A stretch of DNA of 64,000 nucleotides from Desulfobacterales bacterium HSG2 (lineage in GTDB: Bacteria > Desulfobacterota > Desulfobacteria > Desulfobacterales > 4be13), in assembly GCA_030378035.1 (NCBI GenBank), contig JAUCGI010000003.1, positions 1 through 64,000 on the forward strand, given 5' to 3'. A program made the translations under genes and the position numbers. Below, piece by piece: positions 29,630-49,269 of the stretch (position 1 is its first letter; every line of letters starts with the position of its first letter). Under the pieces are notes generated by a model, which was not told where the DNA came from, ran no database searches, and was given only the letters and a program-made list of their open reading frames with translations.

Positions 29630-29652
29630 CATTTCCATCCTTTCATGTCCCT

Positions 29653-29701
29653 CCTCACAGGACATTGCTTTAAACTCTCATTCTTTCAGTACCTTACTCA
29701 T
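29653..29701 (-). pseudogene. Remnant of the PD-(D/E)xK-like gene with internal deletion
   Basis: GGAGGAGGCAATGAGTAAGG and the next codons match the start of the gene at 39705-40271 (MSKVLKE). They join directly to DNA matching its last third (ending near CAATGTCCTGTGAGGA). The whole middle, including the putative active site, is missing. It lies immediately upstream of methyltransferase 1, exactly where the intact gene precedes methyltransferase 3. Confidence 0.75.
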
Positions 29702-31622: not shown

Positions 31623-34600
31623 GATGCATGGACCTCCAATCCTTTGATGATTCGTATTTCTCTGACGCTATCGAAATAATATAGTCGTTGTCGGACCGGA
31701 TGCGTGGGGTCATACAGTCGGGTAAATACGGTTTTAATCCGTGCGAATGTGTGTTCCCGGGATTCTGTCGGCATGATCGCAGGCAAATCGTCCAAGTATT
31801 TCAGAATATCCTTTCCCGAACGTTTCAGACTGTCTTCAAAATACAGCTCACAGACGCAGCCGTCTGTGACTTGTTCAAAAAATGACACCATCATACGGTC
31901 TTTCGCTTTCGACAGCGTAGTCTCAATTTTTTTGAGGAACAGAATATAATCCACAAGGGTTATGAACGGCTTCTGTTCAGAGGGTGAAATTCTTTTGATC
32001 GGAATTTTTTCCACAAAGATTTTTTTATACTCAAGATACCCCCCTTCACGGCTGTATCCGGTCTGCCGCATATAATAACTTGAAATTTTCGAGTTCAGCA
32101 CCGCAAGGAGATATTTGATCTCCTCCGGATTCTCCTGCGGATCTCGGAGTGTCAGCAGATTGGACGGGGCAGTAAGATAAAAATGCTCCGTGTCAAGCGC
32201 AAATTTTGCGTTGATCGCCAAATTTCCCCAGATAATTTTCGGCTTTTCAAATTCTTCCAAATAACTGCAATTGCGTAAGTTTGTCCAATCCTTTCCTTTG
32301 TCCCGCCGTTTTTCAAGTTTTTCCCGGAATTGTCCGAGCCACTTCCGGATGACAGGATAATTTTTCTTAACATCAATCGGAGGAATATTTTTTTCCTTTA
32401 AGCCGTTATGTGTGTTAATCAGCCACATATCCTTAAATTCCGCTTTCCACTTTTGAATGTCCTTTCCTGCTAAAACAGGTTTGAGGAGTTCCGCATTTTT
32501 GGGGTCTTCAATAAGTTTGTCTTTCGTCTTTCCGTCAATAATGAATGCCTTATTACAGCCTGTTTTAACACCATAATTAATTGCAATGTTCCAATCTTTT
32601 AACGGAATTCCCTGTTTCTCAATCCGGGTTGCGATGTCAAAGGTGCCTTTTGCACCCACCACCCAGGCGGCTTTCTCAGGCTGCCTCATCCGATAACCGT
32701 GGGTACGGACATACTCGGCAAGCGAATCTGTCAGATCGAAGTCATTGTCAATCCAACACAGAAGCTGTTTCTCATTACGAGTCCGTTTCGGATTGGCGGC
32801 TTTTTGCAGGAGCAGGATATTGGTGTTTACTGCTGCGTCAAAAACCGGAACATTGCCGAAATCAATTAAAAGCAGGGGATTTGTCTGTTCCGAGAAAAAT
32901 TTGCGGAGCTTTACGCCGTAGTTTGCCCGCATCCATTTATTGGATGAGATAAAACACAGCAGACCCGGTGCGGCTAAGAACTGATATCCTTTCTCATAAA
33001 ACAGACAATAAATGTCTCCCGTTCGGTCATAGGTCTGGTACTGTTGTTCTTCCCACTCTGTTTTCTGGGAAGTGCTGAATTTTTGTATCTGAACATATGG
33101 CGGATTCCCGATCACAATGTCAAACCCGTCCCTTATGCCGAACATCCATTCCGGATCAAACCATCCGCAGGATTCCCCTGAAAACGGATTCCACGCCACA
33201 AGCCGCAAAGTTTCGGAATCTCTGACCGCTTTCCATTCAAGCAGTCGCTCTGCCATACGTTTCCGTACTTCCGCGAATTTTTTTCTCACAACTCCTTTTT
33301 CTTCGTCATAAGTTGAAAAATAGGCAGTATGCAGTTCTTTCAGTTTCACAATCTCATCCTGAGATTCAAAAATACCCATATCTCCTTTTGGCAGCCCGAT
33401 CAGGGTATCCGCGCACACAAATTTGAACTCCAGGTTCGGCAAAGGCAAAATTCCCCGGTTGCCATCGGGATCATCATCGGAGATTTTTTCCTCCACGACT
33501 AATGACAGAAAAAACCGCAGCTTTGAAATTTCCGTTGCGATTGTCTGAATATCGGCACCATGGATGCTGTTGCGAATGATGCCGAGTTTTCTTGTATAAT
33601 TCCGTAAATCTTTCTCCCCTTCGAGTTTTTTTTGCATCATTCCCCTTGCAACCGGGTCCGGGATATTGGCGAGCAGTTTTCCAAGCCATTTTTCGGAATT
33701 CGGATCTGTCCGTTGCAAAATCAGAGTCATCTTCTGCAAAATGCCCATGGGAAACGCGCCGGAACCGCAGGCGGGGTCAAACATTTTCAGATGTTCCAGG
33801 GCATCGGTGACTTTGTCTTTTTCTGCTTCAGTCAGATCTGTCTCCGTATCCTGATATGAAATCAATCTGCTGATTTTATCCTCACCGATCCCTGTCTTTG
33901 TCAGAAGATACTGTTTCAGGCTTTCATCAGTCATGTATTCCACTATCGCTCTCGGAGTATAATAACTTCCTGTGGACCTTCTCGCACTCTGACCGGTTTC
34001 CGGATTAATCTCCGCCAGCAGATTCTCAAAAACTCTTCCGAGCATTTCGGGATCAATGGCAATTTCGATTTCAACCGGCGTGTTTTCTTCTATGGTAAAA
34101 TGATAATGCTCAAAAATTCCGAGGAGTTCCTTGCACCATTCATCAGGTATTTTCAATGTGTTCAGATAAACAGACGTGTTCAGTTCATTCAAATGATAAA
34201 AATCATACCGGTGCGGTTCAAAAAGCCCGCCGTTCAGAAACGGAATCATATCCCATTCATCGCCACGCAGCTCGGGGGGGCGTTCATCTTTTTTTCTGTT
34301 CAGGACTTCAAAAAACAAGGGTTCGAGAACAGAATGATAATATCCGCAAGCCCGGGGTTCGGTAACCGCTTTTTCAGACAGGATATTATCCGAAATCAGG
34401 GGGATGTTTGCCTGCGAGGTTTTCTTTTTCAGAAATTGGCAAAAGAGCAGCCTTCCGATCAGCCGCGCTGCGAATTCTTTTCTCACAGTATCATCGGGAT
34501 TGCCGGGCAGTTCCGGTACGCGTTTTTTAGTCATCTTTTCCGAACCGGTTTTTCTCTCACCGCCGACAAATTTTCTGAACATCCTTGCAACATCATTATA

Positions 34601-35278
34601 AAAATTCTTATTTAAAACAGAGATACTGAGCGTTTTCTCCCATGCATCATGCAGCTCCGCAAAGTTTGTCACCGTATGATTTTTTCTTAATTCTTCAAGA
34701 CTCAGATCATAAAGAATCTCAACATGGGCCCGGTGTGGATCCGCTATCCGTACATCTTTGATAAGCGTCATTTTCTCAAGCACATCCCGGGTCTCCTCCT
34801 TCTTCTGCAGCCATCTCCTGATAACCGAAAAGGTGAGATATTCGCCGTATCTGAAAAGAACCATCACCGGCATGTGGAAAACCCTGTTCATCTGACGGGT
34901 GATGTCCGAGAGTTCTGTTCTGCTGTAAGCCTCGCCTTTCAGTTCAATGGCAAAGAACAGGTATGCCTCAGTGATGGTGTTGTCAATTTTTTTGGTGTCA
35001 GACAGCGATTCCTGATTTTTCATCTCGGCATCTGTCAACTGGAAAAGCAGTTCAGTCCTTTTCCATTCCGCTGTCAGAGCCTTCTGCCCAAATTTTCCGA
35101 TATCAGGGATGCTGTCGTTCTCCTTTAGATAACTCTCGGAGAACTCCTGATATGTGGGATCGTCAAGCCTGTTCTGCCGATCTGTGTCATATCCGAGGGT
35201 CTGAAAAAGACGGATTGACGCGTCAAAAAGATCATCCTGGCCGAAATTGCGGATTGCGTTTTGAATTTTTTGTTTCAT
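31619..35278 (-). CDS. Eco57I-type DNA methyltransferase 2 (probable N6-adenine)
   Basis: 1,219 residues. Canonical motifs are present: SYYTPRAIVEYM (motif X region), FDPACGSGAF (motif I, SAM binding) and VIGNPPYVQI (motif IV). The C-terminal part (DIQKWKAEFKDMWLI, FEKPKIIWG, YLLAVLNSKISSYY) is the target-recognition-like region of COG1002/Eco57I enzymes. The N-terminal ~230 residues contain FAIELKGEAYSR, whose ExK pattern could suggest a nuclease domain as in type IIG enzymes, but I cannot confirm it. It is closest to methyltransferase 1 (25985) across the middle. ATPase 2 follows with a 4-base overlap. Confidence 0.88.
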   Translation of the reverse strand: MKQKIQNAIRNFGQDDLFDASIRLFQTLGYDTDRQNRLDDPTYQEFSESYLKENDSIPDIGKFGQKALTAEWKRTELLFQLTDAEMKNQESLSDTKKIDNTITEAYLFFAIELKGEAYSRTELSDITRQMNRVFHMPVMVLFRYGEYLTFSVIRRWLQKKEETRDVLEKMTLIKDVRIADPHRAHVEILYDLSLEELRKNHTVTNFAELHDAWEKTLSISVLNKNFYNDVARMFRKFVGGERKTGSEKMTKKRVPELPGNPDDTVRKEFAARLIGRLLFCQFLKKKTSQANIPLISDNILSEKAVTEPRACGYYHSVLEPLFFEVLNRKKDERPPELRGDEWDMIPFLNGGLFEPHRYDFYHLNELNTSVYLNTLKIPDEWCKELLGIFEHYHFTIEENTPVEIEIAIDPEMLGRVFENLLAEINPETGQSARRSTGSYYTPRAIVEYMTDESLKQYLLTKTGIGEDKISRLISYQDTETDLTEAEKDKVTDALEHLKMFDPACGSGAFPMGILQKMTLILQRTDPNSEKWLGKLLANIPDPVARGMMQKKLEGEKDLRNYTRKLGIIRNSIHGADIQTIATEISKLRFFLSLVVEEKISDDDPDGNRGILPLPNLEFKFVCADTLIGLPKGDMGIFESQDEIVKLKELHTAYFSTYDEEKGVVRKKFAEVRKRMAERLLEWKAVRDSETLRLVAWNPFSGESCGWFDPEWMFGIRDGFDIVIGNPPYVQIQKFSTSQKTEWEEQQYQTYDRTGDIYCLFYEKGYQFLAAPGLLCFISSNKWMRANYGVKLRKFFSEQTNPLLLIDFGNVPVFDAAVNTNILLLQKAANPKRTRNEKQLLCWIDNDFDLTDSLAEYVRTHGYRMRQPEKAAWVVGAKGTFDIATRIEKQGIPLKDWNIAINYGVKTGCNKAFIIDGKTKDKLIEDPKNAELLKPVLAGKDIQKWKAEFKDMWLINTHNGLKEKNIPPIDVKKNYPVIRKWLGQFREKLEKRRDKGKDWTNLRNCSYLEEFEKPKIIWGNLAINAKFALDTEHFYLTAPSNLLTLRDPQENPEEIKYLLAVLNSKISSYYMRQTGYSREGGYLEYKKIFVEKIPIKRISPSEQKPFITLVDYILFLKKIETTLSKAKDRMMVSFFEQVTDGCVCELYFEDSLKRSGKDILKYLDDLPAIMPTESREHTFARIKTVFTRLYDPTHPVRQRLYYFDSVREIRIIKGLEVHAS

Positions 35279-35371: not shown

Positions 35372-35917
35372 TCAGTTCGCTATCGAATTAATAAAATCAT
35401 TAAGCTGTGCGATCAGAGGGGCATTCTGTATGGTCCTGATTGTCTGTTTGTCCATGCGGTCAAGAATTCTCTGCAACATTATGTCGTCGTAAGACTCATT
35501 TGCAAGAGCGCTGATAAGAAACTTTTTCGGATTTAACCTGGCAAACTCTCTTTCCAAGTCTGAAAACTCCTTTTTTTCAGCAAACTGTGCTATGAAACCC
35601 ATATCCCGGACAAGCAGAATTTCGATTTCCGGCACTGCCAGAAACACCTCGGACTCGGTGCCATGAGATGCCTGAACGATGGAATATCTCAGAAGTTCAA
35701 GCTGTTCCTGAACGGATGCCGAGTCGCTGGTATCCGCATTCAGGACAAGCGCTGCCGGAACCTGCTCCATGGCCAGAACAGAATGGGCCAGAGACTGGGC
35801 AGAGTAACGACCGTCTCCGACTATGAATTCAGTGAGGCGGAGTATTTCATCAGGCAGCACCGCCCTGAGAATATCCGCTTCGTGTTTGCCTTCGGTGATC
35901 AGATATGCCTTTTTCAT
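35372..35917 (-). CDS. TOPRIM-like protein, copy A
   Basis: About 181 residues from MKKAYLITEG; an upstream ATG at 35944 adds nine residues. ITEGKHEADIL (E9) followed by LVLNADTSDS (D62 and neighbours) fits the glutamate and DxD-type metal site of TOPRIM domains, as in OLD-family nucleases. The remaining helices (PEIEILLVRD, KKFLISALANESYDDIMLQR) are family-typical only in a loose sense. It differs from copy B (41364-41909) by only a few residues, and the flanking DNA is also duplicated. It sits upstream of methyltransferase 2 and downstream of methyltransferase 3, all on the same strand. A role as a nuclease subunit is inferred. Confidence 0.65.
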   Translation of the reverse strand: MKKAYLITEGKHEADILRAVLPDEILRLTEFIVGDGRYSAQSLAHSVLAMEQVPAALVLNADTSDSASVQEQLELLRYSIVQASHGTESEVFLAVPEIEILLVRDMGFIAQFAEKKEFSDLEREFARLNPKKFLISALANESYDDIMLQRILDRMDKQTIRTIQNAPLIAQLNDFINSIAN

Positions 35918-35944
35918 AATCATACCAACTTGAATGCCTGTCAT

Positions 35945-36069: not shown

Positions 36070-39000
36070 TTAATCTCTGATTTTCTTTTTGGCAATATTA
36101 TCAATGCGTTTTGCATTGTATTCCTTTTCGGAGATGATTTTTTCTATGTCAGGATCGACGATTCTCACCTCTTCGTAGGTGAGGTCGTAGAGTTTATAGA
36201 CCATGAGGTCTATCTGTTTCTCCAATTCAGCGGTGTCGGCGTCAGGGCTTTCCTTTTTCAAAGCTGTAATATGATCTGCTTTGGATTCAAACATGGCAGT
36301 TACACCTGCCGCAGTCGGATGAAGAGTGGGAACAACCCGAAGCTGGGGGGCCTGAAATTGAAAATATCCTCCGCTCATTCGGAGCGCACCAAAAAATTGT
36401 TCGTAAAAGAACATAAATAATTTTGAGTTGCAGTATGCCGCCAGATATTTGAGAGAAACTCTCTCTTTCGGAGCATGGAAGCAATTTGTGTTTACGGACG
36501 CATAATCACCATCCGAATCCAGGAATGCCTCACACAAAACAGCCATTTTTGCGAACAATATCTTTGGTGACCGGTATATTGCCTTTCTGCGAGATATGAC
36601 ATTTGCTTTGTCCAAAGGCAAAAATGGTGTGACATAGCTGCTTCCCCTGTGTCTGAGTGCTTTAATTCCCCAGAGCGAGGCGTACCTGTCAATTGTTCCG
36701 GTGTTGATCACTTTTAATGTATCCTTCCCCTTGTCATTTGAAAAATGCATGCCGTAAGACTCCGCTTCGGATGCCGTTGATGTGGCGTTAATCTCTCCGT
36801 ATTCTGACAGAGGCTCGGTTCCGTCAATAAACGACTGAAGATAGTCGGCCTTGTCTGAAAGCAGAAATCCCCAGAGATTATCCGCCAGCATCGTGAGCAT
36901 GTCATATTCGACGAAGACAGTCTTAAATTTTTCCGTGTCGAAAACAGCGTCTTGTCTGTTAACTGGTTGCAAAACCGAAACATGCTTTTTTTCAGTGGAA
37001 ACGTGTTTTCTGAGAACAGTGATAACCGGATAAACAGATATTTCGCTGAACACATTGACGGATGACAGATCAACCAGCTTCTGAACAGTCGAACAGTTGA
37101 GCATGTGGGCTCTCAGAGCAGTTGCATATTTGGCAGACAAATATTTGTTCGGGGTAATCAGAGACATCTGCCCGTTGTTCTTCAACAGTTCCATGCCCTT
37201 CTCAAAGAATAAGACGAACACATCATAAGTCCCTTTGGATGTTCTGAATATTTTCTTATATTCCTCTCTCCGTTTTGTTCCGTAAATATTTTTAAAATCT
37301 GTCGCATTGATATACGGCGGATTCCCGATCACAATATCAAATCCGTCCCTTATCCCGAACATCCATTCCGGATCAAAAAACTCCGCAGAAGTGTTCTGGT
37401 TATACGGATTCCAGGATGCAAGCTGTTTTGCAGTGCTTTCATCACCAAAACCGGATGCCAGAACTTTGGCGATTTTCTCCCTTGTTTCCTTGTCTTCTTT
37501 TCTGTATTTCCTTTTTGTTCTCGGCGTCTTTGCGCTGAAATGACTGTGTCGTATCTCCTTTAGTCTGTTTTCAAGTCTCTCTGTTTCAGGATTGTCAAAA
37601 AGGTTTCTGTTATCTTTCGGTTTTTCAATCTTTATCAGCGTATTTGCCGCCACAAATTTGGTCTCCAAGTTCGGCAGGGGCCTGATGCCGAAATTCTCTC
37701 TTGTCTTATCAGGAATCTGCTCCGCAATCAGAGAAATAAAAAATCGGAGCATGCTGATCTGCACCGCAACCGGCTGAATATCCACGCCATAGATGGAATT
37801 TTCTATCAGATAAAGCTTTCTGCCGTAATCCGAGGTGTTGAAATCAAATGCCTTTTCTATCTCCTGAAGCTTTTGCTGTCTCTCTTTCCTGTCTCCCAAA
37901 TTATATGCTGTCTCAGTCTCCCGGATCGCCCTCTGTTTTTGCAGATCCCGCCATCTGCTGTTGTCGCTGTCAAGCTTGCCGAGAATAAAAACCAGTTTGT
38001 GCAGTATGCCCATGGGAAAAGCACCGGATCCGCAGGCAGGATCAAGGATTTTCAGTTCCGACACCGCTTCGACTATCGAAGACACCTCATCATCTGTGAA
38101 AGCATGTTCTTTTTCGGTATATGCAAAAAGAACATCCAGACCGGTTTTAATGTCATCCTCTGTGGCATCTTCAACTTTCTCCGCAACAAGATTGGAAAGA
38201 GACGCCTTCAGACTCTCATCAGCCATATAGTCAACGATCTCCCTCGGAGTGTAAAAAGAGCCTGTCTGCTTTCTGGCGGTGGTTTCTGTTTCGGGATTAT
38301 AGGAGGCAAGAAGATTTTCAAAAACTCTTCCGAGCAGTTCCGGGTCCAGGGCAATCTCTTCTGTGACGGGCGTGTTTTCCGCTATGGTGAATTTGTATTT
38401 GTCCAGAAGATTTATAAGCCCTCTCACCTCATATTTTTTGTTTCCTGTTCCGTATGTTTTATTCAGATCAAAGTTTTTTTCCTCAGCAAAAAACAGAAAA
38501 TCGGGAACTCTGAGCGGATTATCGTCTCTGTCGGAAAAGCCGTCGATTCTGATTATTCTGTCTCCGCCCCTGGGTCCTTTTTTGGTCGGATGGGGTTTGT
38601 CAAGACAGTCAAACAGTCCGCCGTTTAAGAACGGGATTTCTTCAAACAGCTTTAACACCTCATCCCTGCCAATTTCAAACAGATGTTCGTATCTGTAAAG
38701 ATTGGTCACATTATAGTTCTGCCCTTTTCTTCTGAATGCCCTTTTGCCCTGTTCCTGATTCAGAGTGGCGAAAAAAAGATTTTGCAAAATCGCCTTGTAA
38801 AAGGTGCTCCGGTTTTTATCCCTGAAATTCAGTATGCTGTCCAGTTCGTTTTTATCAAACAGTTTTTTGGGGATCAGCCCTTTTTCCCTGACAAACCAGA
38901 CAAATATCAGCCGTGTCAGCAACCTGATAATGGCAGTGGCATTCCTGATCTCCTCATTTGCCTCGCCGTCTTTGGGAAAATCCACATTTTGCAAGGCCCA

Positions 39001-39708
39001 GAAATACCAGTTGGCAAGTTCCCCGTAAAACTTTTTATTCAGCTCCGAGCAGTCCAGCACCTTCTGCCAGGCATTATGCAGCGCGACAAAATTTGTGACG
39101 GTGTATGTTTTCCCTAACGCATCCAGGTCCAGATCGGACAGTATCTCAATATGCGCCCGGTGCGGATCCGCTATTCGGATATCTTTGACAAGGGTTACTT
39201 TTTCAAGCACATCCCTGCTCTCGTCTCTTTTGTGCAGTCTTCTTTTGATGACCGAAAGTGTCAGATATTCACCGTACCTGAAAAGCAGCATTACCGGCAT
39301 GGGGAAAACCCGGTTCATCTGTCGGGTGATATCCGAAAGTTCTGTCCGGCTGTAATCCGCATCTTTCAGCTCAATGGCAAAAAACAGGTATGCCTCAATG
39401 ATGGTGTTGTCAATCTTTTTGGTGTCAGAAAGCATTTCCTGATCCGTCATCTCGGATTCTGACAACTGAAAAAGCAGTTCCACGCGTTCCCAGTGGTCTG
39501 TCAGAGCCTTCTGCCCGAATTTTCCGATATCAGGGATGCTGTCGTTCTCCTTTAGATAACTCTCGGAGAACTCCTGATATGTGGGATGATCAAGCCTGTT
39601 CTGCCGCTCTGTGTCATATCCGAGGGTCTGAAAGAGACGGATTGCCGCGTCAAAAAGATCATCCTGACTAAAATTGCGGATTGCGTTCTGAATTTTTTGT
39701 CTCATCAT
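36070..39708 (-). CDS. Eco57I-type DNA methyltransferase 3 (probable N6-adenine)
   Basis: 1,212 residues with SFYTPREIVDYM, LDPACGSGAF (motif I) and VIGNPPYINATD (motif IV). After the conserved first ~220 residues it follows a different middle lineage from methyltransferases 1 and 2 (KVLDCSELNKKFYGELANWY, RLIFVWFVREKGLIPKKLFD), shared with methyltransferase 4. The recognition region is distinct from the other three. The final ~40 residues (YDLTYEEVRIVDPDIEKIIS) are nearly identical to those of methyltransferase 4. Its start overlaps the stop of the PD-(D/E)xK-like gene by four bases, tying it to the ATPase and nuclease-like genes upstream. Confidence 0.88.
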   Translation of the reverse strand: MMRQKIQNAIRNFSQDDLFDAAIRLFQTLGYDTERQNRLDHPTYQEFSESYLKENDSIPDIGKFGQKALTDHWERVELLFQLSESEMTDQEMLSDTKKIDNTIIEAYLFFAIELKDADYSRTELSDITRQMNRVFPMPVMLLFRYGEYLTLSVIKRRLHKRDESRDVLEKVTLVKDIRIADPHRAHIEILSDLDLDALGKTYTVTNFVALHNAWQKVLDCSELNKKFYGELANWYFWALQNVDFPKDGEANEEIRNATAIIRLLTRLIFVWFVREKGLIPKKLFDKNELDSILNFRDKNRSTFYKAILQNLFFATLNQEQGKRAFRRKGQNYNVTNLYRYEHLFEIGRDEVLKLFEEIPFLNGGLFDCLDKPHPTKKGPRGGDRIIRIDGFSDRDDNPLRVPDFLFFAEEKNFDLNKTYGTGNKKYEVRGLINLLDKYKFTIAENTPVTEEIALDPELLGRVFENLLASYNPETETTARKQTGSFYTPREIVDYMADESLKASLSNLVAEKVEDATEDDIKTGLDVLFAYTEKEHAFTDDEVSSIVEAVSELKILDPACGSGAFPMGILHKLVFILGKLDSDNSRWRDLQKQRAIRETETAYNLGDRKERQQKLQEIEKAFDFNTSDYGRKLYLIENSIYGVDIQPVAVQISMLRFFISLIAEQIPDKTRENFGIRPLPNLETKFVAANTLIKIEKPKDNRNLFDNPETERLENRLKEIRHSHFSAKTPRTKRKYRKEDKETREKIAKVLASGFGDESTAKQLASWNPYNQNTSAEFFDPEWMFGIRDGFDIVIGNPPYINATDFKNIYGTKRREEYKKIFRTSKGTYDVFVLFFEKGMELLKNNGQMSLITPNKYLSAKYATALRAHMLNCSTVQKLVDLSSVNVFSEISVYPVITVLRKHVSTEKKHVSVLQPVNRQDAVFDTEKFKTVFVEYDMLTMLADNLWGFLLSDKADYLQSFIDGTEPLSEYGEINATSTASEAESYGMHFSNDKGKDTLKVINTGTIDRYASLWGIKALRHRGSSYVTPFLPLDKANVISRRKAIYRSPKILFAKMAVLCEAFLDSDGDYASVNTNCFHAPKERVSLKYLAAYCNSKLFMFFYEQFFGALRMSGGYFQFQAPQLRVVPTLHPTAAGVTAMFESKADHITALKKESPDADTAELEKQIDLMVYKLYDLTYEEVRIVDPDIEKIISEKEYNAKRIDNIAKKKIRD

Positions 39709-40271
39709 TCCCGTCCTTCCAGAAAGACCTCGGTCTCGATATATGGGTTATTATCTCTCCTCACAGGACATTGCTTTAAACTCTCATTCCAAGTCAGTTC
39801 GTTAAACACAAGGACATCTTCAAGATAGTTATTCTCCCAGGCAGAGCGGTCCGGTCCCAGCAGACAGCTTGAAAGTTTCAGGGCATCCATTGAGGCAAGC
39901 AGCAATCCGGGATCCGGATTCCCGATGGCCAGAAGTACAATATATTTCATTGGCTTGGACGGAAGCTTTTTGCACAGGTGGAGATATAAAAAACTGTCCT
40001 TTATTTTCGGGCCAAGTTCGTTTGAGAAAAGGGTCTCATTATTTATCTTCACCATGAACGCTTCAAGCCTTTGATCCCTGAATTCACGGGGTATTTTTGA
40101 ATTGGAGGGATCTTTCACTTCGACAAACCAGAAATCGTCAGGCCATTCCACAACGAAGTCCACCGCCTTCATGCAATGCGCCATTTTTCCGGCTTCCTCA
40201 TCAAAGTGTTCGGCGCTGAGTGCGGCCGTGAAATCGAATACAAGCTGTCCCTCTTTCAGTACCTTACTCAT
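39705..40271 (-). CDS. Small PD-(D/E)xK-like protein, candidate nuclease subunit
   Basis: About 188 residues from ATG 40271, which has GGGAGGAAAC just upstream and overlaps the RecF-like ATPase stop. AVDFVVEWPDDFWFVEVKDP shows the spacing D38...E51-x-K53 of a PD-(D/E)xK active site with hydrophobic strands on both sides. That is suggestive but short of proof. The stop overlaps the methyltransferase 3 start (ATGA), so ATPase, nuclease-like protein and methyltransferase are translationally coupled in series. A deleted copy precedes methyltransferase 1. A restriction endonuclease role within this cassette is a reasonable inference. Confidence 0.62.
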   Translation of the reverse strand: MSKVLKEGQLVFDFTAALSAEHFDEEAGKMAHCMKAVDFVVEWPDDFWFVEVKDPSNSKIPREFRDQRLEAFMVKINNETLFSNELGPKIKDSFLYLHLCKKLPSKPMKYIVLLAIGNPDPGLLLASMDALKLSSCLLGPDRSAWENNYLEDVLVFNELTWNESLKQCPVRRDNNPYIETEVFLEGRE

Positions 40272-41253
40272 TGTTTCCTCCCAATGCCCGCCCGATTTCC
40301 AGATTGTACATTCTGGCAAACTGATCCGCAATCCTGTTCGGAAACAGGGCGGGATAAGTTCCCGAGCTGCTCAGACTGACGGAGTCCTTGTCATTTTTGG
40401 AAAGCGAATAAAACCTCAGCGAGTGATTTCCACGTTGGAGTTCAAACTCTTTGAGCAGCACATAACTGTGAGTTGCGATGAAAATCTGGGCACCCATTTG
40501 CTCCAGTTCCGTCATCACACTGACGACCAGGGGAATCATGGACGGATTCAGATTCGTCTCGGGTTCGTCCCAGCAGAGAAGCGATTTCCCATCCAAGGAG
40601 CCGTTTTCAATCAGGAGCCGGAGAAGGGCGAGCTTGCGTATGCCCTCCGCGACCAGGGTGAACTCAATGTCACCGGTTCTGCTTTTCAGGTAAAATTCCT
40701 CATTTTTGGCCGTGATTTCTCCTCCCATCCCTTTTTCCAGCATATCCATAAGTTTTTTCTGCCGGGGGTCTGTCTTTTTCAGACGCGGGAGAAAGGCCCG
40801 GTCAATAATGTCGGAACAGACTCTTTCAAAATGGATTTCCCGGGTTGCATGCAGAGAGCGGAATCCCGGGGCATTGGCCAGCATCTCCTTTGCCGGAATA
40901 TAGACCGGCTTGCTGTCATTCCGGGGAATCCCCGATATCCGGACCGTTCCCCGTGGCGTTTTCTCTGTAATATGTATGGAAAAGGTTTCTCCGTTTTTGC
41001 CAACGGAAAGGGATGCCCCGGCTTCCCGCTTCCGGATCAGTCGTTGCAGCGAGCGGTTGTGGGGCAGGAAAATCTCCGAGATTCCGGCCCCCGGATCATC
41101 ATGCTCGTCTATAACGCCTTGGAGATAAATCAGTTTCAAAAGATGGGTTTTTCCGGTACCGTTGTCACCGATGAACAGATTTATCCCGGGAACCAGGTCG
41201 ATTTTTAATTGGTCAAACACCGTGAAATTGCATATTTCAATGTTATTGATCAT
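40264..41253 (-). CDS. RecF-like AAA ATPase
   Basis: 329 residues, short RecF/AAA_21-type ATPase: Walker A GDNGTGKTH (29-37) after a typical IEICNFTVFDQLKIDL start, a degenerate signature (LVAEGIRKLALL), Walker B LLCWDEPETNLNP (near 228) and H-loop IFIATHSYVLL. Such ATPases often pair with TOPRIM or nuclease subunits in OLD-, PARIS- or Septu-like defence systems. A TOPRIM gene lies about 110 bp upstream and a PD-(D/E)xK-like gene overlaps its end. The stop codon and the next start share bases. An internally deleted copy is at 23502-24000. Confidence 0.82.
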   Translation of the reverse strand: MINNIEICNFTVFDQLKIDLVPGINLFIGDNGTGKTHLLKLIYLQGVIDEHDDPGAGISEIFLPHNRSLQRLIRKREAGASLSVGKNGETFSIHITEKTPRGTVRISGIPRNDSKPVYIPAKEMLANAPGFRSLHATREIHFERVCSDIIDRAFLPRLKKTDPRQKKLMDMLEKGMGGEITAKNEEFYLKSRTGDIEFTLVAEGIRKLALLRLLIENGSLDGKSLLCWDEPETNLNPSMIPLVVSVMTELEQMGAQIFIATHSYVLLKEFELQRGNHSLRFYSLSKNDKDSVSLSSSGTYPALFPNRIADQFARMYNLEIGRALGGNNE

Positions 41254-41363
41254 CGTCTGTAAATTCCATGTTTATAAGTGAAACACTTGATGCCATAAAT
41301 AAAAATGATTGTCAACTCTAAAATTATTCCCGCAAAACATTTAAGTGTCATTTCAGCCGACTG

Positions 41364-41909
41364 TCATTTCGCTACCGAAGTGATAAAATCATTAAGCCGT
41401 GCAATCAGAGGGGCATTCTGTATGGTCCTGATTGTCTGTTTGTCCATGCGGTCAAGAATTCTCCGCAACATTATGTCGTCGTAAGACTCATTTGCAAGAG
41501 CGCTGATAAGAAACTTTTTCGGATTCAACCTGGCAAACTCTCTTTCCAAGTCTGAAAACTCCTTTTTTTCAGCAAACTGTGCTATGAAACCCATATCCCG
41601 GACAAGCAGAATTTCGATTTCCGGCACTGCCAGAAACACCTCGGACTCGGTGCCATGAGATGCCTGAACGATGGAATATCTCAGAAGCTCAAGCTGTTCC
41701 CGAACGGATGCCGAGTTGTTGGTATCGGCATTCAGGACAAGCGCTGCCGGAACCTGCTCCATGGCCAGAACAGAATGGGCCAGAGACTGGGCAGAGTAAC
41801 GACCGTCTCCGACTATGAATTCAGTGAGGCGGAGTATTTCATCGGGCAGCACCGCCCTGAGAATATCCGCTTCGTGTTTGCCTTCGGTGATCAGATATGC
41901 CTTTTTCAT
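41364..41909 (-). CDS. TOPRIM-like protein, copy B
   Basis: A near-identical twin of the protein at 35372-35917, with the same ITEGKHEADIL and LVLNADTNNS motifs. Differences are concentrated at the DxD-adjacent residues (TNNS against TSDS) and the last residues (TSVAK against NSIAN). Here it lies upstream of the RecF-like ATPase, an order resembling two-gene ATPase/TOPRIM defence modules. The downstream gap to the ATPase holds repeat DNA (TTCCCGCAAAACATTTAAG) rather than a tight overlap, so coupling is weaker. Confidence 0.65.
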   Translation of the reverse strand: MKKAYLITEGKHEADILRAVLPDEILRLTEFIVGDGRYSAQSLAHSVLAMEQVPAALVLNADTNNSASVREQLELLRYSIVQASHGTESEVFLAVPEIEILLVRDMGFIAQFAEKKEFSDLEREFARLNPKKFLISALANESYDDIMLRRILDRMDKQTIRTIQNAPLIARLNDFITSVAK

Positions 41910-41936
41910 AATCATACCAACTTGAATGCCTGTCAT

Positions 41937-42052
41937 CTCAGCAGAGCTTTTAACTCTCTTTTAACTGTCATTCCCGCAAAACTTCTAACTGTCATTCCCG
42001 CAAAACTTCTAACTGTCATTCCCGCGAAAGCGGGAATCCACTGATGCAGTCA
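41937..42052. repeat. dRS3-like palindrome with tandem lead-in units (copy B)
   Basis: Near-identical copy of 35945-36060, with the palindrome at 42018-42037, between TOPRIM copy B and the end of methyltransferase 4. The shared sequence runs from the TOPRIM gene through this repeat into the last ~45 codons of the methyltransferase, marking one duplicated block. Confidence 0.85.
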
Positions 42053-42061: not shown

Positions 42062-45000
42062 TTAATTTCCGGTTTTCTTTTTGGCAATATTATCAATGCG
42101 TTTTGCATTGTATTCCTTTTCGGAGATGATTTTTTCTATATCAGGATCGACGATTCTCACCTCTTCGTAGGTGAGGTCGTAGAGTTTATAGACGATGAGG
42201 TCTATTTTTCTTTCAAGCAAGGTAGTGTCAGCATCAGAGTTTCTATTTTTGATGCTGAGGATATTATCGACAATCGTTTCAACAGGCTTCGTTTTTTTGG
42301 TAGTGGGAATTGGGAAATTCTTCATAAACACAGCACTCGGTTCATAGTAACCATTTTGAAGCTTTGCCAACAATTTCTCAAAAAGCCACATGACAACACT
42401 TGAATTTAACACACCAAGCAGATATTTTGACGCGCCCGGAATGATAAAAGCTTTTTGGTTTGTATAGTAATTGTCTTCATCCCAAGTAAATTCATTGCGT
42501 TTACAGATATTTGGATAGATAATCTTTGGCTGCTCAAATTCTTGCCAATACGCAATGTTATCCTGAATCTCAAACCATTTATAGCTACCGGCTTTCCGAC
42601 CATTTTTGCCATCCGGAGTGAGTCGTTCCTTATATTGATACAGATGCTTATGAATTGCAGGATAGTTTTTAATATTAGTTCCACGCCTTGTAAATATAAT
42701 CCATAAATCCTGTGGGGCCAAGCACCATCTTTTTACGTCCCGTCCTCGCAAAAAAGGTTTCAAAACCTCTTCGGAAGACGAGTCCTCATCAATCAATCGC
42801 TCCTTTGTTACACTGTCCACGATAAAAGCTTTGTTGAAACCAGTTACAATGCCACGATAGAATCTTCCATTTACATATTCCCCTAACGGCTTTCCCACCT
42901 TACGCAATTTTTCAAGCAGATTTAAAACAGAATGTGGTTCAAATCGCCAGGCATCCGCACTAAGTTTATTTTGCGGAACATAAAAACCGTCTTTCAGGAA
43001 AATTTCAGGGAATGCTTCTATCGGATTACCAAGTTCCCAATTCAGGGCGCGGATATTTGACGGTCCGGCTTTGGCGGATTTTTCAAAGATAATGATACTC
43101 GGATAGGCAATAGCCGTAAAAACGGGCGCATCACCAAAATCAATAAGCTGACGGATACAAACGCTGTTCCTTAAAAATTCCCGCAGTTTCTTTCCATAAG
43201 CTGCCCGAAAATATTTGTTGGAAGAAATAAATGAAAGAATACCTCCCGGTTTGAGAGAATTAAAACCTCGCTCATAAAAGAAGACATACAAATCAGAGGT
43301 TCCTGTATAACACTTGTATTGTTTTAGCAAGATCGGCTTGAGATGTTTGATTTTTTCATGCCGCACATACGGCGGATTCCCGATCACAATATCAAACCCA
43401 TCCCTTATCCCGAACATCCATTCCGGATCAAAGAACTCCGCAGAGGCGTTCTGGTCATAAAGGTCCCATTTGGCCAGTTTCTTAGTCGTATCTGTGGAAA
43501 ACCCCTTTTTAGCGAGCTGTCTGCTGATCTCCTTTCTCAGCCGTTTATCTTCCGCCATACACCGCTTCTTGGTATCTCTTGTCCGCGCGTTGAAATACCG
43601 TTCCCGAACCGTTTTCAGATCGTCCTCCATACTGAAAAGTTTGGTGTCCTTCAGGCCCGTCTGGCCTGATTCCTCAATGCCGATAAGGGTGTTCGCGGCG
43701 ATAAACCGTGTCTCGAGATTCGGCAGCGGCAGTATCCCGATATTCTCTTTTTCCTCATCTGTTTTCTGGTCCACCACTAAGGAGATAAAGAAACGGAGTT
43801 TGGCAATCTGCACCGCGACAGACTGGATATCCACGCCGAAGATGCAGTTCTGAATCAGATAGAGCTTGCGCGCATAATCGAGTTCGTTGTTACCGAAAAT
43901 CTCATCGATGTTCTCAAGCCTCTCATTCAGCTCACGGACCGCCTTGTCCCTGGCCCTGTCATCATTTATCCGCTCCGCCGTCTCTATGTCCTGATTTATC
44001 TTCCGGGTCTCATTTTCAATCTGCCATTCTTTCCACCGGGCATTCACCGGGTCGGTTTTGCGGAGGATATGGAGCATCTTATGGAGGATACCCATGGGGA
44101 ACGCTCCGGAACCGCAGGCCGGATCGAGTATTTTCAGTTGATGGAGCGCGGCGATCAGCGCCTCGGTCTCCTCCTCGATGAAACGATGATCTTCTTCTGT
44201 GTAACTCAGAAGATGACGCAGTTTCCCGTTAATCTCCTTCTTTTCCGCATCTGAGAGCCGCTTCGGAGAAGGGGCGATCTCCGCCCGAACCGGCTTCTGT
44301 GTCCCGAACAATCTTCCCCGGGAAGCCCCTTTCCTCAGAACAAAACCGGCTCTGCCCTCATAAAAATCAGTCAGCCTGTTCTCCAAATACGCGATCAGGG
44401 ACTCATCCGCCATGTAACTGACGATCTCACGGGGTGTGTAAAAAGAGCCGGTCTGCTTGCGTGCTGTGGTCCCGGTCTCCGGATTGTAGCTGGCCAGCAG
44501 ATTCTCAAAGGCCCGTCCCAGTAGTTCCGGGTCCAGAGCGATCTCCTCCTCCACCGGCGTGTTCTCCGCAACGGTGAACTTGTAGCGTTTCAGCAGGTCG
44601 ATCAGCCCGCGGACCTGATATTTCCTGTTCCGGGTTCCGTAGTCCCTGTTCAGATCCTCGGACCGGCTTTCGGAGAAGAACAGAAAGTTGGGGAGATGGA
44701 GCCTGTTGTCCTTCCGGTCTGAAAACCCGTCAATCCTGGTCACGGGTTTCTCGCTGTCAAGACACTCGAACAGGCCCCCGTTCAGAAAAGGCGTCTTTTC
44801 AAGAAGTTTCAGAATCTTGTTCGGTGTGCGGAAACAACTCCGGTACCGGTAACAGTTGTGCATCATGTAACTCTTGTTCTTATCCTGATATCGCTTCTCA
44901 GTCCTGAATTCTCTGCTCTTCATCGGGGTGTTCAGGGTGGCGAAAAAGAGATTCTGGAGAATCGCTCTGTAATAGGTCCCGCTTTCGGGAGAGAAATCCC

Positions 45001-45886
45001 TCAGAAGCTTCCCCAGTTTCGGCTCGTCGAAAATATCCTCGGGTATCAGTCCCTTTTCCCTGATGAACCATACGAAAATCAGGCGGGTGATCAGACGGAT
45101 CACATTCACAGGGTTCCGGGTTTCCTCACTCATGTCATTCTGAGAGGGAAAGACCGCGTGTTTCAGAGCCCAGAAATACCAGTCGGCAAGTTCCCTGTAA
45201 AACTTTTTATTCAGTTCCGAGCAGTCCAGCACCTTCTGCCACGCGTTATGCAGCGCGACAAAGTTTGTGACGGTGTATGTTTTCCTTAACGAATCCAAAC
45301 CCAGATCAGCCAGTATTTCAATATGCGCCCGGTGCGGATCCGCTATTCGGATATCTTTGATAAGCGTCACTTTTTCAAGCACATCCCTGCTCTCGTCTCT
45401 TTTGTGCAGTCTTCTTTTGATGACCGAAAGCGTCAGATACCCGCCATACCTGAAAAGAATCATAACCGGTATGGAAAAAACCCGGTTCATCTGCCGGGTG
45501 ATATCCGAAAGTTTTGTTCTGCTGTAAGCCGTTCCCTTCAGTTCAATGGCAAAAAGCAGGTATGCTTCAAAGATGGTGTTGTCAACTTTTTTGGTATCAA
45601 AAAGCATCCCCTGATCCGTCATCTCGGATTCTGTCAACTGGAAAAGCAGTTCAACGCCTTTCCATTCCGCTGTCAGAGCCTTCTGCCCAAATTTTCCGAT
45701 ATCAGGGATTCTGTCGTTCTCCTCCTCCAGATAACTCTCAGAGAACTCCTGATATGTGGGATGATCAAGCCTGTTCTGCCGCTCTGTGTCATATCCGAGG
45801 GTCTGAAAAAGACGGATTGCCGCGTCAAAAAGATCATCCTGGCCAAAATTGCGGATTGCGTTTTGAATTTTTTGTTTCATATTCAT
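42062..45886 (-). CDS. Eco57I-type DNA methyltransferase 4 (probable N6-adenine)
   Basis: 1,274 residues, the longest of the four. Motifs are SFYTPREIVSYM, LDPACGSGAF and VIGNPPYVRHEK. An extra segment of about 50 residues (FVLRKGASRGRLFGTQKPVR...) lies between motif X and motif I. The middle lineage matches methyltransferase 3, while the recognition region (NYPAIHKHLYQYKERLTPDG, WYEIQD-like, GVLNSSVVMWLFEKLLAKLQ) differs and resembles other COG1002 enzymes. The gene begins 29 bases after the stop of the PLD-SNF2 helicase, so the two are very likely co-expressed. A helicase plus a large adenine methyltransferase recalls DISARM- or BREX-type modules, but no DrmA, DrmB, PglZ or BrxC is present. 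Confidence 0.88.
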   Translation of the reverse strand: MNMKQKIQNAIRNFGQDDLFDAAIRLFQTLGYDTERQNRLDHPTYQEFSESYLEEENDRIPDIGKFGQKALTAEWKGVELLFQLTESEMTDQGMLFDTKKVDNTIFEAYLLFAIELKGTAYSRTKLSDITRQMNRVFSIPVMILFRYGGYLTLSVIKRRLHKRDESRDVLEKVTLIKDIRIADPHRAHIEILADLGLDSLRKTYTVTNFVALHNAWQKVLDCSELNKKFYRELADWYFWALKHAVFPSQNDMSEETRNPVNVIRLITRLIFVWFIREKGLIPEDIFDEPKLGKLLRDFSPESGTYYRAILQNLFFATLNTPMKSREFRTEKRYQDKNKSYMMHNCYRYRSCFRTPNKILKLLEKTPFLNGGLFECLDSEKPVTRIDGFSDRKDNRLHLPNFLFFSESRSEDLNRDYGTRNRKYQVRGLIDLLKRYKFTVAENTPVEEEIALDPELLGRAFENLLASYNPETGTTARKQTGSFYTPREIVSYMADESLIAYLENRLTDFYEGRAGFVLRKGASRGRLFGTQKPVRAEIAPSPKRLSDAEKKEINGKLRHLLSYTEEDHRFIEEETEALIAALHQLKILDPACGSGAFPMGILHKMLHILRKTDPVNARWKEWQIENETRKINQDIETAERINDDRARDKAVRELNERLENIDEIFGNNELDYARKLYLIQNCIFGVDIQSVAVQIAKLRFFISLVVDQKTDEEKENIGILPLPNLETRFIAANTLIGIEESGQTGLKDTKLFSMEDDLKTVRERYFNARTRDTKKRCMAEDKRLRKEISRQLAKKGFSTDTTKKLAKWDLYDQNASAEFFDPEWMFGIRDGFDIVIGNPPYVRHEKIKHLKPILLKQYKCYTGTSDLYVFFYERGFNSLKPGGILSFISSNKYFRAAYGKKLREFLRNSVCIRQLIDFGDAPVFTAIAYPSIIIFEKSAKAGPSNIRALNWELGNPIEAFPEIFLKDGFYVPQNKLSADAWRFEPHSVLNLLEKLRKVGKPLGEYVNGRFYRGIVTGFNKAFIVDSVTKERLIDEDSSSEEVLKPFLRGRDVKRWCLAPQDLWIIFTRRGTNIKNYPAIHKHLYQYKERLTPDGKNGRKAGSYKWFEIQDNIAYWQEFEQPKIIYPNICKRNEFTWDEDNYYTNQKAFIIPGASKYLLGVLNSSVVMWLFEKLLAKLQNGYYEPSAVFMKNFPIPTTKKTKPVETIVDNILSIKNRNSDADTTLLERKIDLIVYKLYDLTYEEVRIVDPDIEKIISEKEYNAKRIDNIAKKKTGN

Positions 45887-45915: not shown

Positions 45916-48900
45916 CTACTTGATCACCAGCCAACTGATCAGTTCAAACTGATCACTTTTCTCAGGCCGCTCTGATTTGGGAATGATCCCGCCTCTGCCC
46001 CTGAGCAGTTTTCTGTTCACCTGTTTTTTAAACACCGACCTTATTTCACTGATCGCCCTACTCAACAACAGATTGTATTCCCGCATCTCAGAACCACTCT
46101 TTGTCTCTTTGTCAAACAGATCGCATAATTCATCATAAGGCGCGTCAACCCCGTTGCCCAGCAGCCTGAAAATCTCAAGTATCTGTTTGGCATGGGTATA
46201 ATTGAAACGAACCGTGCCATCTCTCCTGACATAGACCAGAAAATAAGGCGACAAAGGATTCACAGTCTCGTTTCCCCCGGTATCCCCTTTCTGTCTCAGG
46301 CAGAAAATGACCCCGGGCCGGATAATATCCTTCGCGCTGTCGCTCATATCGCCGATCTCAGAAGACCTGAAAAATTCACTCCCGGGCGAGGGAACCACCG
46401 CATAAAGTCCCAAAGGAGCATTCTGAAGTTTCTCCCGATTCTTCTCAATATAATTGGCCAGTTCCACCCTGAAATCATCCAGAGTGAACTCACTCAGAGA
46501 AATATTCTCATCAATCTCCTCCAAGTCAAGAACTTCCTTTTTCAGCCGCTTCAACTGCCTGTTTCTGAAATTCAGATCATCCTCTATCAGACCCCGTATC
46601 TGGTCTTTTCTGAGCAGATTATCCTGACCGGTTGCGGTAATATCGACCAGGGCCATTCTTGCTTCCACCCGGTCTTTCAGATTGATATAATTGTTCAGAT
46701 CATCCGTGGGCCAGAAGTTCACCAACTGAATCTTTTTGTTCCTGCTCCCGAGCCGGTCAATCCGTCCGAATCTCTGGATAATCCTGACCGGGTTCCAGTG
46801 AATGTCGTAGTTGATCAGATAGTCGCAATCCTGAAGATTCTGCCCCTCGGAAATACAATCCGTGGCAATGAGAATGGAGATTTCCTCATCCTGGGGCATC
46901 TCCTTTATCTTGTCCCTGTTTTTGGAGATCGGCGAAAAATTCGTGAGAATATGCTCAAACCGGGTTTTGCCCAGGGTGGTCCTGTTCGTGCCGCTGCCGG
47001 AGACCAGTGCGATGTGCAGGTTCAGCTCCTCTGTGGCAAAAGGGAGGAGATTCTCATGCAGATAGTTTGCCGTGTCTGTAAATGCCGTGAAGACAATCAC
47101 TTTCTGATTTCCGTCATTGATCGGTTTTTCAGTCTTCTCTCTGATCAGGGACTTCAGCACCCCGAGCTTCTCATCCCTGTCCGGCGTAACCGCTTTTGCC
47201 GAGTTTTTAAGCAGAACCAGCGCGTCTTTGTCGCTTTTCAGATCCTTCAGCCAGAGGTCCAAATCCAGATGGGCAAGATCATATTTCAGCTTCTTGCCGA
47301 TACTGTTCGCGTCATTCAGTTCTGTGTCGTCCTCATCATATATCTCAGGCGATTCAATCTCCGGGGAATCCGACACAGCCGCTTTGTACGCCCTGATTCG
47401 ATCCTGCAACCCTGTGATTTTTTCCATGGTTCTTTCCATGGATGTTTCAAAAGACTCAATGGAGCTTTCAAGTCTTTTCAGAAAATTCACCTTCATCATG
47501 CCGATGAGAAAATGCTCCCTGTTCTCCTGCGAAAAGGCAATAACCGTTTTTCCCGCTTTCTTTTCATAAAAACTTTTCCACTCATCCCTGACATACGCCC
47601 AGGGATTGAACAGGGAGAGTTTGTAAGTCATAATCTCCCTGTTTATCCCGTCATAAGAGGGAAATTCATCTTTTGTGTCAATATCCGGTGCTCTTGAAAT
47701 CACCGGCAGCCTTTTCGGAAACGCGCCGATACGCTCCATCTCCTCCTTATAATAGGTCTGGATGTGCTTTCTGGAACGGGCAATGGTCAGCTCGTCAAGC
47801 AGTTTGAAAAAAGAGGAATCGAGTTTTTCAAGGAGCTTTTTCACATCCCGTGTCCCGTTCTTTTTGGGATCTGCCCAGCGGGTAAATGTCTTCTGAGCCT
47901 CTTTCATTGTCTGTGCGAGATGTTTTACGTCTGTTTTGTCATAAAACGCATCCTCTTTTCCGCCGGAGATGAAATAGAGCTGGTTCCTCAGATCTTTAAG
48001 GTCATTGTTCACCGGCGTTGCGGAGAGCAGAAGCACTTTTGTCCGAACACCGGAATTGATAATATCCGCCATCAGCTTCTCATATCTGCTTTTCCTTATG
48101 ATATGACCTTCTTCATCTCTCTTGCCTCTGGTGTTGTTTCTGAAATTGTGCGACTCATCTATGACCACAAGATCATAATTGCCCCAGTTGATTGCTCCGA
48201 GGTCAATGTTGCTGACGGAACGGCCGGAGTCTCTGCTCAGATCCGTGTGACTGAGAACGGTATAACCGAGTCTGTCATCAATTAGCGGATTCAGCAGGCT
48301 GTTATTCTGAGCCTGAAACACGGTCCAGTTGTCACTCAGTTTTTTCGGGCAGAGCACCAGAACCCTGTTATTGAGCAGTTCAAAATATTTTATCACGGCC
48401 AGTGCCTCAAAGGTCTTGCCAAGTCCCACACTGTCCGCAAGCACACACCCGTTGTGCCTGAGAATCTTGTTTATCGCGCCCTTCACAGCATCCTTTTGAA
48501 ATGCGTATAGCATATTCCAGACTTTTGTGTCAAAAAAGCCGGTGTTTTCATCAAGAAGTCCGCCCCGCCGCTGCTCTGACAGGAACTTCTCAAAAAGATG
48601 ATAAAGCGTCTTAAAATAAATGAATTCGGGATCGTTCTCCGCGTAGAGCTGTTCAAGGTATCGGAGAACATCCGCTTTGACATCCTTCACCAGATGATTG
48701 TCTTCCCATATTTCCTCAAACCAGTTTAACAGGTCTGCCCTGTCTCTGTCATCGGTGACCTCCATGTTCAGTTCAATATTCGGATTTCCGCCCAGCCCGA
48801 GACCTCTCACGGTGAAATTCGAGCTGCCAAGTATGGCTTTCTGATTGCCGTTGTTGCTGATATGATACATTTTGCCGTGGAGAAAATTCGACTTTGCCAC

Positions 48901-49245
48901 GGATCTGATATTCACCCTGGCTTCTATCCAGTCACTGCATTCTTTTGCAACGGATTTTTGCCGGAGCCTGCTATGAAGCGGAATCACCAACTGGTCATCT
49001 TCGATTTCAAATTCTTTCCTGTCTGTTTTTGAAGGATCAAGAGAACGGATAAAAGCCGGTTCGCCAAACAGAAAATTGAGGGATTCGATATTGTTCAGCT
49101 TGTCTTTCAGGTGCTGATATGCATAAATCGTGAAATAGGCTGATACCACAGAAAGCCTGCTCCCCTCATCAATCTGCTGTTTTAAAAATTTCCCGACACT
49201 TCCTCTTTTATGATTGTCTTTGATTGAAGAAGGTATGAGAGTCAT
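45916..49245 (-). CDS. PLD-domain SNF2-type helicase
   Basis: About 1,109 residues from ATG 49245, with AAAGG upstream. The N-terminal phospholipase-D-like domain shows FLHGKMYHI (H123-x-K125) and GSSNFT, one HKD-type active site that would pair as a dimer. The helicase part has Walker A ADSVGLGKTF (near 273), DEAH-box VVIDESHNF (near 365), LLSATPVNN (near 408) and motif VI QRFGRIDRLGS (near 828), the SNF2 superfamily 2 set. C-terminal helices are long and charged. Helicases with N-terminal PLD nucleases occur in several phage-defence systems, where they travel on and cut DNA. It is upstream of methyltransferase 4. Confidence 0.88.
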   Translation of the reverse strand: MTLIPSSIKDNHKRGSVGKFLKQQIDEGSRLSVVSAYFTIYAYQHLKDKLNNIESLNFLFGEPAFIRSLDPSKTDRKEFEIEDDQLVIPLHSRLRQKSVAKECSDWIEARVNIRSVAKSNFLHGKMYHISNNGNQKAILGSSNFTVRGLGLGGNPNIELNMEVTDDRDRADLLNWFEEIWEDNHLVKDVKADVLRYLEQLYAENDPEFIYFKTLYHLFEKFLSEQRRGGLLDENTGFFDTKVWNMLYAFQKDAVKGAINKILRHNGCVLADSVGLGKTFEALAVIKYFELLNNRVLVLCPKKLSDNWTVFQAQNNSLLNPLIDDRLGYTVLSHTDLSRDSGRSVSNIDLGAINWGNYDLVVIDESHNFRNNTRGKRDEEGHIIRKSRYEKLMADIINSGVRTKVLLLSATPVNNDLKDLRNQLYFISGGKEDAFYDKTDVKHLAQTMKEAQKTFTRWADPKKNGTRDVKKLLEKLDSSFFKLLDELTIARSRKHIQTYYKEEMERIGAFPKRLPVISRAPDIDTKDEFPSYDGINREIMTYKLSLFNPWAYVRDEWKSFYEKKAGKTVIAFSQENREHFLIGMMKVNFLKRLESSIESFETSMERTMEKITGLQDRIRAYKAAVSDSPEIESPEIYDEDDTELNDANSIGKKLKYDLAHLDLDLWLKDLKSDKDALVLLKNSAKAVTPDRDEKLGVLKSLIREKTEKPINDGNQKVIVFTAFTDTANYLHENLLPFATEELNLHIALVSGSGTNRTTLGKTRFEHILTNFSPISKNRDKIKEMPQDEEISILIATDCISEGQNLQDCDYLINYDIHWNPVRIIQRFGRIDRLGSRNKKIQLVNFWPTDDLNNYINLKDRVEARMALVDITATGQDNLLRKDQIRGLIEDDLNFRNRQLKRLKKEVLDLEEIDENISLSEFTLDDFRVELANYIEKNREKLQNAPLGLYAVVPSPGSEFFRSSEIGDMSDSAKDIIRPGVIFCLRQKGDTGGNETVNPLSPYFLVYVRRDGTVRFNYTHAKQILEIFRLLGNGVDAPYDELCDLFDKETKSGSEMREYNLLLSRAISEIRSVFKKQVNRKLLRGRGGIIPKSERPEKSDQFELISWLVIK

Positions 49246-49269
49246 GTTTTTTTCCTTTCTCATTTTTAA

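What the first reader, a model, noticed from the sequence alone, without database searches (positions are those of the whole stretch)
39705..41909. Candidate TOPRIM / RecF-ATPase / PD-(D/E)xK / methyltransferase cassette
Seen: in transcription order TOPRIM-like, RecF-like ATPase, PD-(D/E)xK-like and methyltransferase 3, with the last three coupled by overlapping start/stop codons. Known: ATPase plus TOPRIM pairs (OLD, PARIS, Septu relatives) are defence effectors. The combination with a small nuclease-like protein and an adenine methyltransferase is not one I can match to a named system.
Basis: partly seen in the sequence, partly recalled or inferred. Interest (0 to 1): 0.7.

Follow-up and report, generated by a model that had tools for sequence, protein, structure and literature searches.

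The report
Known ATPase–nuclease pair beside methyltransferase
A bacterial anti-phage gene pair (a sensor-like ATPase and a small nucleic-acid-cutting enzyme, already catalogued as HEC-02) sits in front of a DNA methyltransferase in a repeated restriction-type gene array; the neighbouring TOPRIM gene, proposed as a fourth member, belongs to a different gene pair.

Summary
The four genes and their overlaps are real. The ATPase (40264-41253) and 188-residue protein (39705-40271) are full-length matches to PADLOC's HEC-02 family ("Hma-embedded candidate"). The small protein has an invariant D...ExK motif, and its predicted fold matches restriction endonucleases best, so PD-(D/E)xK is supported. 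The pair is adjacent in 27 of 27 loci examined. In 13 of 27 a methyltransferase follows directly: BREX PglX in twelve, the type IIG-like enzyme here in one. So ATPase > nuclease > methyltransferase is a recurring arrangement, but a known one. The same kind of pair (OLD-type ABC ATPase plus PD-(D/E)xK) is described in BREX, and a similar pair, WonAB, aborts infection.

The TOPRIM-fold protein is not part of the cassette. It is duplicated in the window without the ATPase. Its relatives follow an Mrr-like nuclease in 10 of 13 loci, and it is absent from the other 26 HEC-02 loci.

The host locus is an array of four DUF4391-Eco57I-type methyltransferases with a phospholipase D-SNF2 helicase and two SMC-like ATPases, a context I did not find recorded for HEC-02. 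New member of a known kind. The mechanism (backup abortive effector triggered through the ATPase) is inferred.

The parts
40264..41253 (-). HEC-02A: OLD/RecF-type ABC ATPase, 329 aa, Walker A GDNGTGKTH, Walker B LLCWDEPE, H-loop ATHS
   Evidence: PADLOC HEC-02A 2.5e-103 over residues 1-325; Pfam AAA_21/AAA_15; motifs conserved across relatives
39705..40271 (-). HEC-02B: PD-(D/E)xK nuclease, 188 aa; D38, E51, K53 (ExKD) invariant
   Evidence: PADLOC HEC-02B 1.1e-47; invariant columns in 19 sequences; model pLDDT 85.5; best structural neighbours are restriction endonucleases, Z about 6
36070..39708 (-). Methyltransferase 3: DUF4391 N-terminus with an ExK-type motif, Eco57I/N6 MTase core (DPACGSG, NPPY), TaqI_C target recognition; starts at the stop of HEC-02B (ATGA)
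41364..41936 (-). Orphan TOPRIM-fold protein (ATG 41909 preferred); not part of the cassette
   Evidence: fold; no Pfam or PADLOC match; Mrr-like partner in relatives:
35372..35944 (-). Second copy of the TOPRIM-like gene (96% aa identical), without a neighbouring HEC-02 pair
42062..45886 (-). Methyltransferase 4 (1274 aa), same family
45916..49263 (-). Phospholipase D (HKD)-SNF2 helicase, 1115 aa, core of the host locus
   Evidence: Pfam PLDc_2, SNF2-rel_dom, Helicase_C; PADLOC C3a139 'HKD+Snf2' 5.7e-133; next to an MTase in relatives
31619..35278 (-). Methyltransferase 2 (1219 aa)
29832..31622 (-). SMC/RecN-like ATPase (596 aa), overlapping methyltransferase 2
25985..29665 (-). Methyltransferase 1 (1226 aa); motif I DPACGSA and motif IV EPPY suggest it is inactive
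24197..25975 (-). SMC/RecN-like ATPase (592 aa)
23508..24001 (-). Truncated second HEC-02A copy with an internal deletion and no HEC-02B
   Evidence: 93.7% nt identity over 477 nt; sequence read

Best explanation
Genes 41253-39705 are a two-gene HEC-02 module: an OLD-type ABC ATPase (sensor/regulator) and a PD-(D/E)xK nuclease (effector). The module is embedded in front of a methyltransferase gene of a restriction-type array. Most likely the ATPase dimer holds or licenses the nuclease and lets it act when phage infection, possibly inhibition of the host methylation-based defence, is sensed. The nuclease then cuts nucleic acid and stops growth, as a backup abortive-infection layer behind the restriction system. 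Shown here: identity, fold, motif, pairing, order and embedding. Inferred: complex formation, trigger, target and abortive outcome. The TOPRIM-like gene next door is a bystander.
For: Full-length HEC-02A/B matches. Invariant D...ExKD motif and restriction-endonuclease-like model. A-B adjacency in 27/27 loci; methyltransferase directly downstream in 13/27, usually with brxC directly upstream. TOPRIM absent from the other 26 HEC-02 loci, and an Mrr-like gene directly upstream of TOPRIM in 10/13 loci. Purifying selection on both genes. Literature: OLD-ABC paired with PD-(D/E)XK in BREX, proposed as backup effectors (PMC12839542); HEC means Hma-embedded candidate (PMC12988326, PMC10855318); WonAB, an OLD-ABC ATPase plus PD-(D/E)xK pair, aborts infection, needs both active sites, and halts translation without degrading chromosomal DNA (PMC12137116).
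Against: No experiment on this pair; direct homology to WonA/WonB was not tested. Foldseek gave no PDB match below E 0.001, and Z about 6 is modest. The pair also stands without a detected methyltransferase neighbour in several loci (L069, L075, L076, L078), so dependence on the host system is not shown. The MAG is 72.6% complete and the region is repetitive, so the array order could contain assembly error.
Confidence: 0.72

Rival explanations
1. One reading: TOPRIM, ATPase, nuclease and methyltransferase form one four-part defence system, for example a TOPRIM-ATPase (PARIS-like) effector with an extra nuclease.
For: Same strand, 110-nt gap, TOPRIM fold closest to OLD and Gabija. In one relative genome (G002) a TOPRIM copy lies near the same helicase-methyltransferase locus (L085).
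Against: The second TOPRIM copy has no ATPase beside it; 0 of 26 other HEC-02 loci have TOPRIM; 10 of 13 TOPRIM loci have an Mrr-like nuclease directly upstream and none has HEC-02. The TOPRIM glutamate is not conserved in the family and the first D of DxD is N in both window copies.
Confidence: 0.05
2. HEC-02B is the cognate restriction nuclease of methyltransferase 3, so the two form an ordinary restriction-modification pair with the ATPase as motor.
For: ATGA coupling of nuclease and methyltransferase here; nuclease directly before pglX in many loci.
Against: The nuclease always follows HEC-02A but not always precedes an MTase; the partners are unrelated MTases (PglX and DUF4391-Eco57I types), and in L065/L066 the pair lies after pglX. 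The ATPase is OLD/RecF-type, not a helicase motor. The MTase family already carries a DUF4391 N-terminus with an ExK motif and sits beside an HKD-SNF2 helicase.
Confidence: 0.12
3. The module is a decaying remnant kept by duplication in a repetitive array.
For: A second HEC-02A copy is truncated; methyltransferase 1 looks inactive; broken HEC-02 copies occur in relatives (L067, L068, L151).
Against: Both HEC-02 genes here are full length with intact motifs, and comparisons show purifying selection.
Confidence: 0.1

Closest known systems
HEC-02 (PADLOC, Hma-embedded candidate)
   Same: Both proteins match its models over almost full length, adjacent and overlapping, embedded in a methyltransferase-containing defence locus
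   Different: Host locus is not Hma or BREX: it is an HKD-SNF2 helicase plus DUF4391-Eco57I methyltransferase array with SMC-like ATPases
OLD-ABC ATPase + PD-(D/E)XK pairs in BREX (PMC12839542)
   Same: Same pair type; in BREX type 1 relatives the same position directly before the methyltransferase
   Different: No brxC found in the window array
WonAB (PMC12137116)
   Same: OLD-type ABC ATPase followed by a small PD-(D/E)xK protein; two-gene operon
   Different: Prophage-borne and stand-alone; sequence homology to HEC-02 not tested here
PARIS / Gabija / OLD
   Same: ABC ATPase of the same broad clade; a TOPRIM fold lies nearby
   Different: Effector partner is PD-(D/E)xK, not TOPRIM; the TOPRIM gene is not linked to HEC-02 in relatives

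Membership tests
HEC-02 | HEC-02A ATPase homology | tested here: met
   PDLC04213 E 2.5e-103, residues 1-325 of 329
HEC-02 | HEC-02B homology | tested here: met
   PDLC04227 E 1.1e-47, residues 5-175
HEC-02 | A and B adjacent, same strand | tested here: met
   8-nt overlap here; 27/27 loci
HEC-02 | Antiviral activity | not testable with these tools
   Needs experiment; the defining preprint is not held
PD-(D/E)xK nucleases | D...(D/E)xK motif at the core strands | tested here: met
   D38 and E51xK53 invariant in 19 sequences; D38 begins the strand 39-42 and E51/K53 lie on strand 47-53 of the model
PD-(D/E)xK nucleases | Restriction-endonuclease-like fold | tested here: met
   Top VIA matches are mostly BspD6I, EcoO109I, BstEII, FokI, Can2, Z 5.5-6.1 over 104-125 residues, rmsd about 3.4-4.7; modest Z, and Foldseek alone not significant
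TOPRIM nucleases (OLD/PARIS/Gabija type) | TOPRIM fold in the 181/190-aa protein | tested here: met
   OLD Z 9.6-9.9, GajA Z 7.1-8.8; model pLDDT 81
TOPRIM nucleases (OLD/PARIS/Gabija type) | Conserved catalytic glutamate and DxD | tested here: not met
   Glutamate varies across the family; DxD reads NxD in both window copies
PARIS/OLD-type ATPase-TOPRIM system | Conserved linkage of the ATPase with TOPRIM | tested here: not met
   0 of 26 other HEC-02 loci carry the TOPRIM gene
BREX type 1 | brxC present in the locus | tested here: not met
   No brxC profile match at 20-52 kb
Hma | HmaA-type SNF2 helicase with HmaB methyltransferase and HmaC (DUF499) ATPase | tested here: not met
   Helicase matches C3a139 (5.7e-133) far better than HmaA (1.1e-25); MTases match type IIG models and the other ATPases are SMC-like, none listing HmaB or HmaC among the shown matches
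WonAB | Homology to WonA and WonB sequences | not tested
   Sequences not fetched

The most novel reading that the evidence does not exclude
HEC-02 is a guard of methyltransferase-based immunity: the ATPase monitors the adjacent methyltransferase complex, whatever its family, and releases the nuclease when a phage inhibitor disables it. That would explain its repeated placement directly before unrelated methyltransferases (PglX and DUF4391-Eco57I types).
Probability: 0.25. Interest if true: 0.6.

Novelty: new member of a known kind. Interest (0 to 1): 0.33.

Why it matters
It supports a small nuclease family by motif and model, corrects the gene membership of the cassette, and shows the same ATPase-nuclease pair placed directly before two unrelated methyltransferase families. 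That makes the question of what the ATPase senses (phage, or damage to the methylation system) directly testable.

Tried and rejected
Four-gene TOPRIM system: rejected on neighbourhoods. Septu, PARIS and Gabija as names: the ATPase matches HEC-02 by far best. Sequence profile of the nuclease against PDB chains: no match up to E 1. Foldseek against PDB: nothing below E 0.001 for either model, so the second look with VIA-align was used. The family PDLC04213 over whole genomes rings in all control genomes because it is an ABC ATPase, so the nuclease was used to define HEC-02 loci. The HEC preprint is not held. Plasmid and phage collections gave only two records per query for the cassette proteins.

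Full report
What is there. The window is part of a 101,762-base contig of a metagenome-assembled genome (72.6% complete). The order is probably Desulfobacterales, because the closest relative of the TOPRIM-like gene lies in a Desulfobacterales MAG (86% identity). On the minus strand, from 49.3 kb down to 23.5 kb, lies one array: a phospholipase D-SNF2 helicase; methyltransferase 4; TOPRIM-like gene; HEC-02A; HEC-02B; methyltransferase 3; second TOPRIM-like copy; methyltransferase 2; SMC-like ATPase; methyltransferase 1; SMC-like ATPase; and a truncated HEC-02A. The four methyltransferases share a nearly constant N-terminus (77-92% identity over the first 200 alignment columns) and diverge in the target-recognition region (13-52% in columns 1001-1100), as expected of enzymes with different specificities. 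Methyltransferase 1 has DPACGSA and EPPY in place of DPACGSG and NPPY and is probably inactive.

ATPase and nuclease overlap by 8 nt, and nuclease and methyltransferase by ATGA. Substitution patterns show that the ATPase and nuclease are real genes.

What the ATPase and nuclease are. PADLOC's HEC-02A model matches the ATPase at 2.5e-103 and HEC-02B the 188-aa protein at 1.1e-47. The nuclease alignment has invariant K35, D38, E42, E51, K53, D54, K89 and D92 in 19 sequences. In the model (pLDDT 85.5) D38 begins one core strand and E51/K53 lie on the next. The closest solved folds are mostly restriction endonucleases and other PD-(D/E)xK enzymes (BspD6I, EcoO109I, BstEII, FokI, Can2; Z 5.5-6.1). 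The Z values are modest; motif, conservation and fold together make the assignment.

Conserved neighbourhood. I gathered 27 loci that encode HEC-02B: order- and phylum-wide genome samples, two plasmids and the window. HEC-02A precedes HEC-02B in all 27. A methyltransferase follows directly in 13: pglX in twelve, methyltransferase 3 in the window. In L065 and L066 the pair follows pglX instead. Several loci show no methyltransferase neighbour. On the Methylomonas and Sphingobium plasmids the pair sits between BrxC and PglX. These loci are not independent samples, so the counts show recurrence, not a rate.

The TOPRIM-like gene is a bystander. But its relatives follow an Mrr_cat-type nuclease gene in 10 of 13 loci, usually with touching or overlapping ends. 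It occurs in none of the other 26 HEC-02 loci. In the window it is duplicated as part of an 842-nt, 97.5%-identical repeat that includes the end of the upstream methyltransferase, and the second copy has no ATPase beside it. Its Mrr-like partner is missing from the array. The catalytic glutamate is not conserved in the family, and the DxD motif reads NxD in both window copies. Divergence from its closest relative shows weaker constraint (dN/dS about 0.6) than that towards a more distant one (0.26).

The host locus. Close relatives of the phospholipase D-SNF2 helicase are followed by the same type of methyltransferase and, in some, an SMC-like ATPase (L119, L120, L128, L132). A more distant one lies beside a stand-alone DUF4391 protein and type III Mod and Res genes (L131). 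In the window's family DUF4391 is fused to the methyltransferase N-terminus. Between helicase and methyltransferase, relatives carry other inserted genes: Schlafen AlbA_2 (L122), KilA-N (L123). HEC-02 in this setting is an embedding I did not find recorded. PADLOC gives the helicase only a candidate label (C3a139).

How it probably works. In WonAB an OLD-ABC ATPase and a PD-(D/E)xK protein are both needed, the nuclease is toxic only when an active ATPase is present, and infection is aborted by a block of translation without loss of chromosomal DNA (PMC12137116). By analogy HEC-02 is best read as sensor plus effector. Embedding in methyltransferase systems fits the published proposal of a backup layer (PMC12839542). 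The trigger and the target (DNA or RNA) are not known. Nothing here shows contact with the methyltransferase.

Verdict. The finding is real, half of its interpretation stands, and the pair is a new member of a known kind in an apparently new host locus.

Noticed in passing
L029, L030, L033, L086-L091, L157: Recurrent two-gene pair of an Mrr_cat-type nuclease and a TOPRIM-fold protein, ends touching or overlapping, in Desulfobacterota and on Rhizobium and Leptolyngbya plasmids; tested members have no PADLOC match. Possibly an uncatalogued system.
   Followed up: partly
window 25985-29665: Methyltransferase 1 has altered motifs I and IV (DPACGSA, EPPY) and is probably inactive.
   Followed up: partly
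L132:22-5937: A 1972-aa open frame joins the SNF2 helicase part to a DUF4391-Eco57I methyltransferase in one chain, reminiscent of single-chain type ISP enzymes.
   Followed up: no
window 22035-22211 and 49751-49929: A 179-nt direct repeat (91% identical) flanks the whole array, 27.7 kb apart; it may mark the ends of the array.
   Followed up: no
window 35976-36062, 41968-42054, 24081-24167: REP-like repeats (GATTCCCGCTTTCGCGGGAATGACAG...) lie at the duplication junctions of the array.
   Followed up: no
L122:3633-5135, L123:7202-8011: The slot between helicase and methyltransferase holds different inserted genes in relatives: Schlafen AlbA_2, KilA-N.
   Followed up: partly
L084:6393-7499 (G000:C57): The same genome carries another, more distant HEC-02A-like ATPase (368 aa) on another contig.
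   Followed up: no
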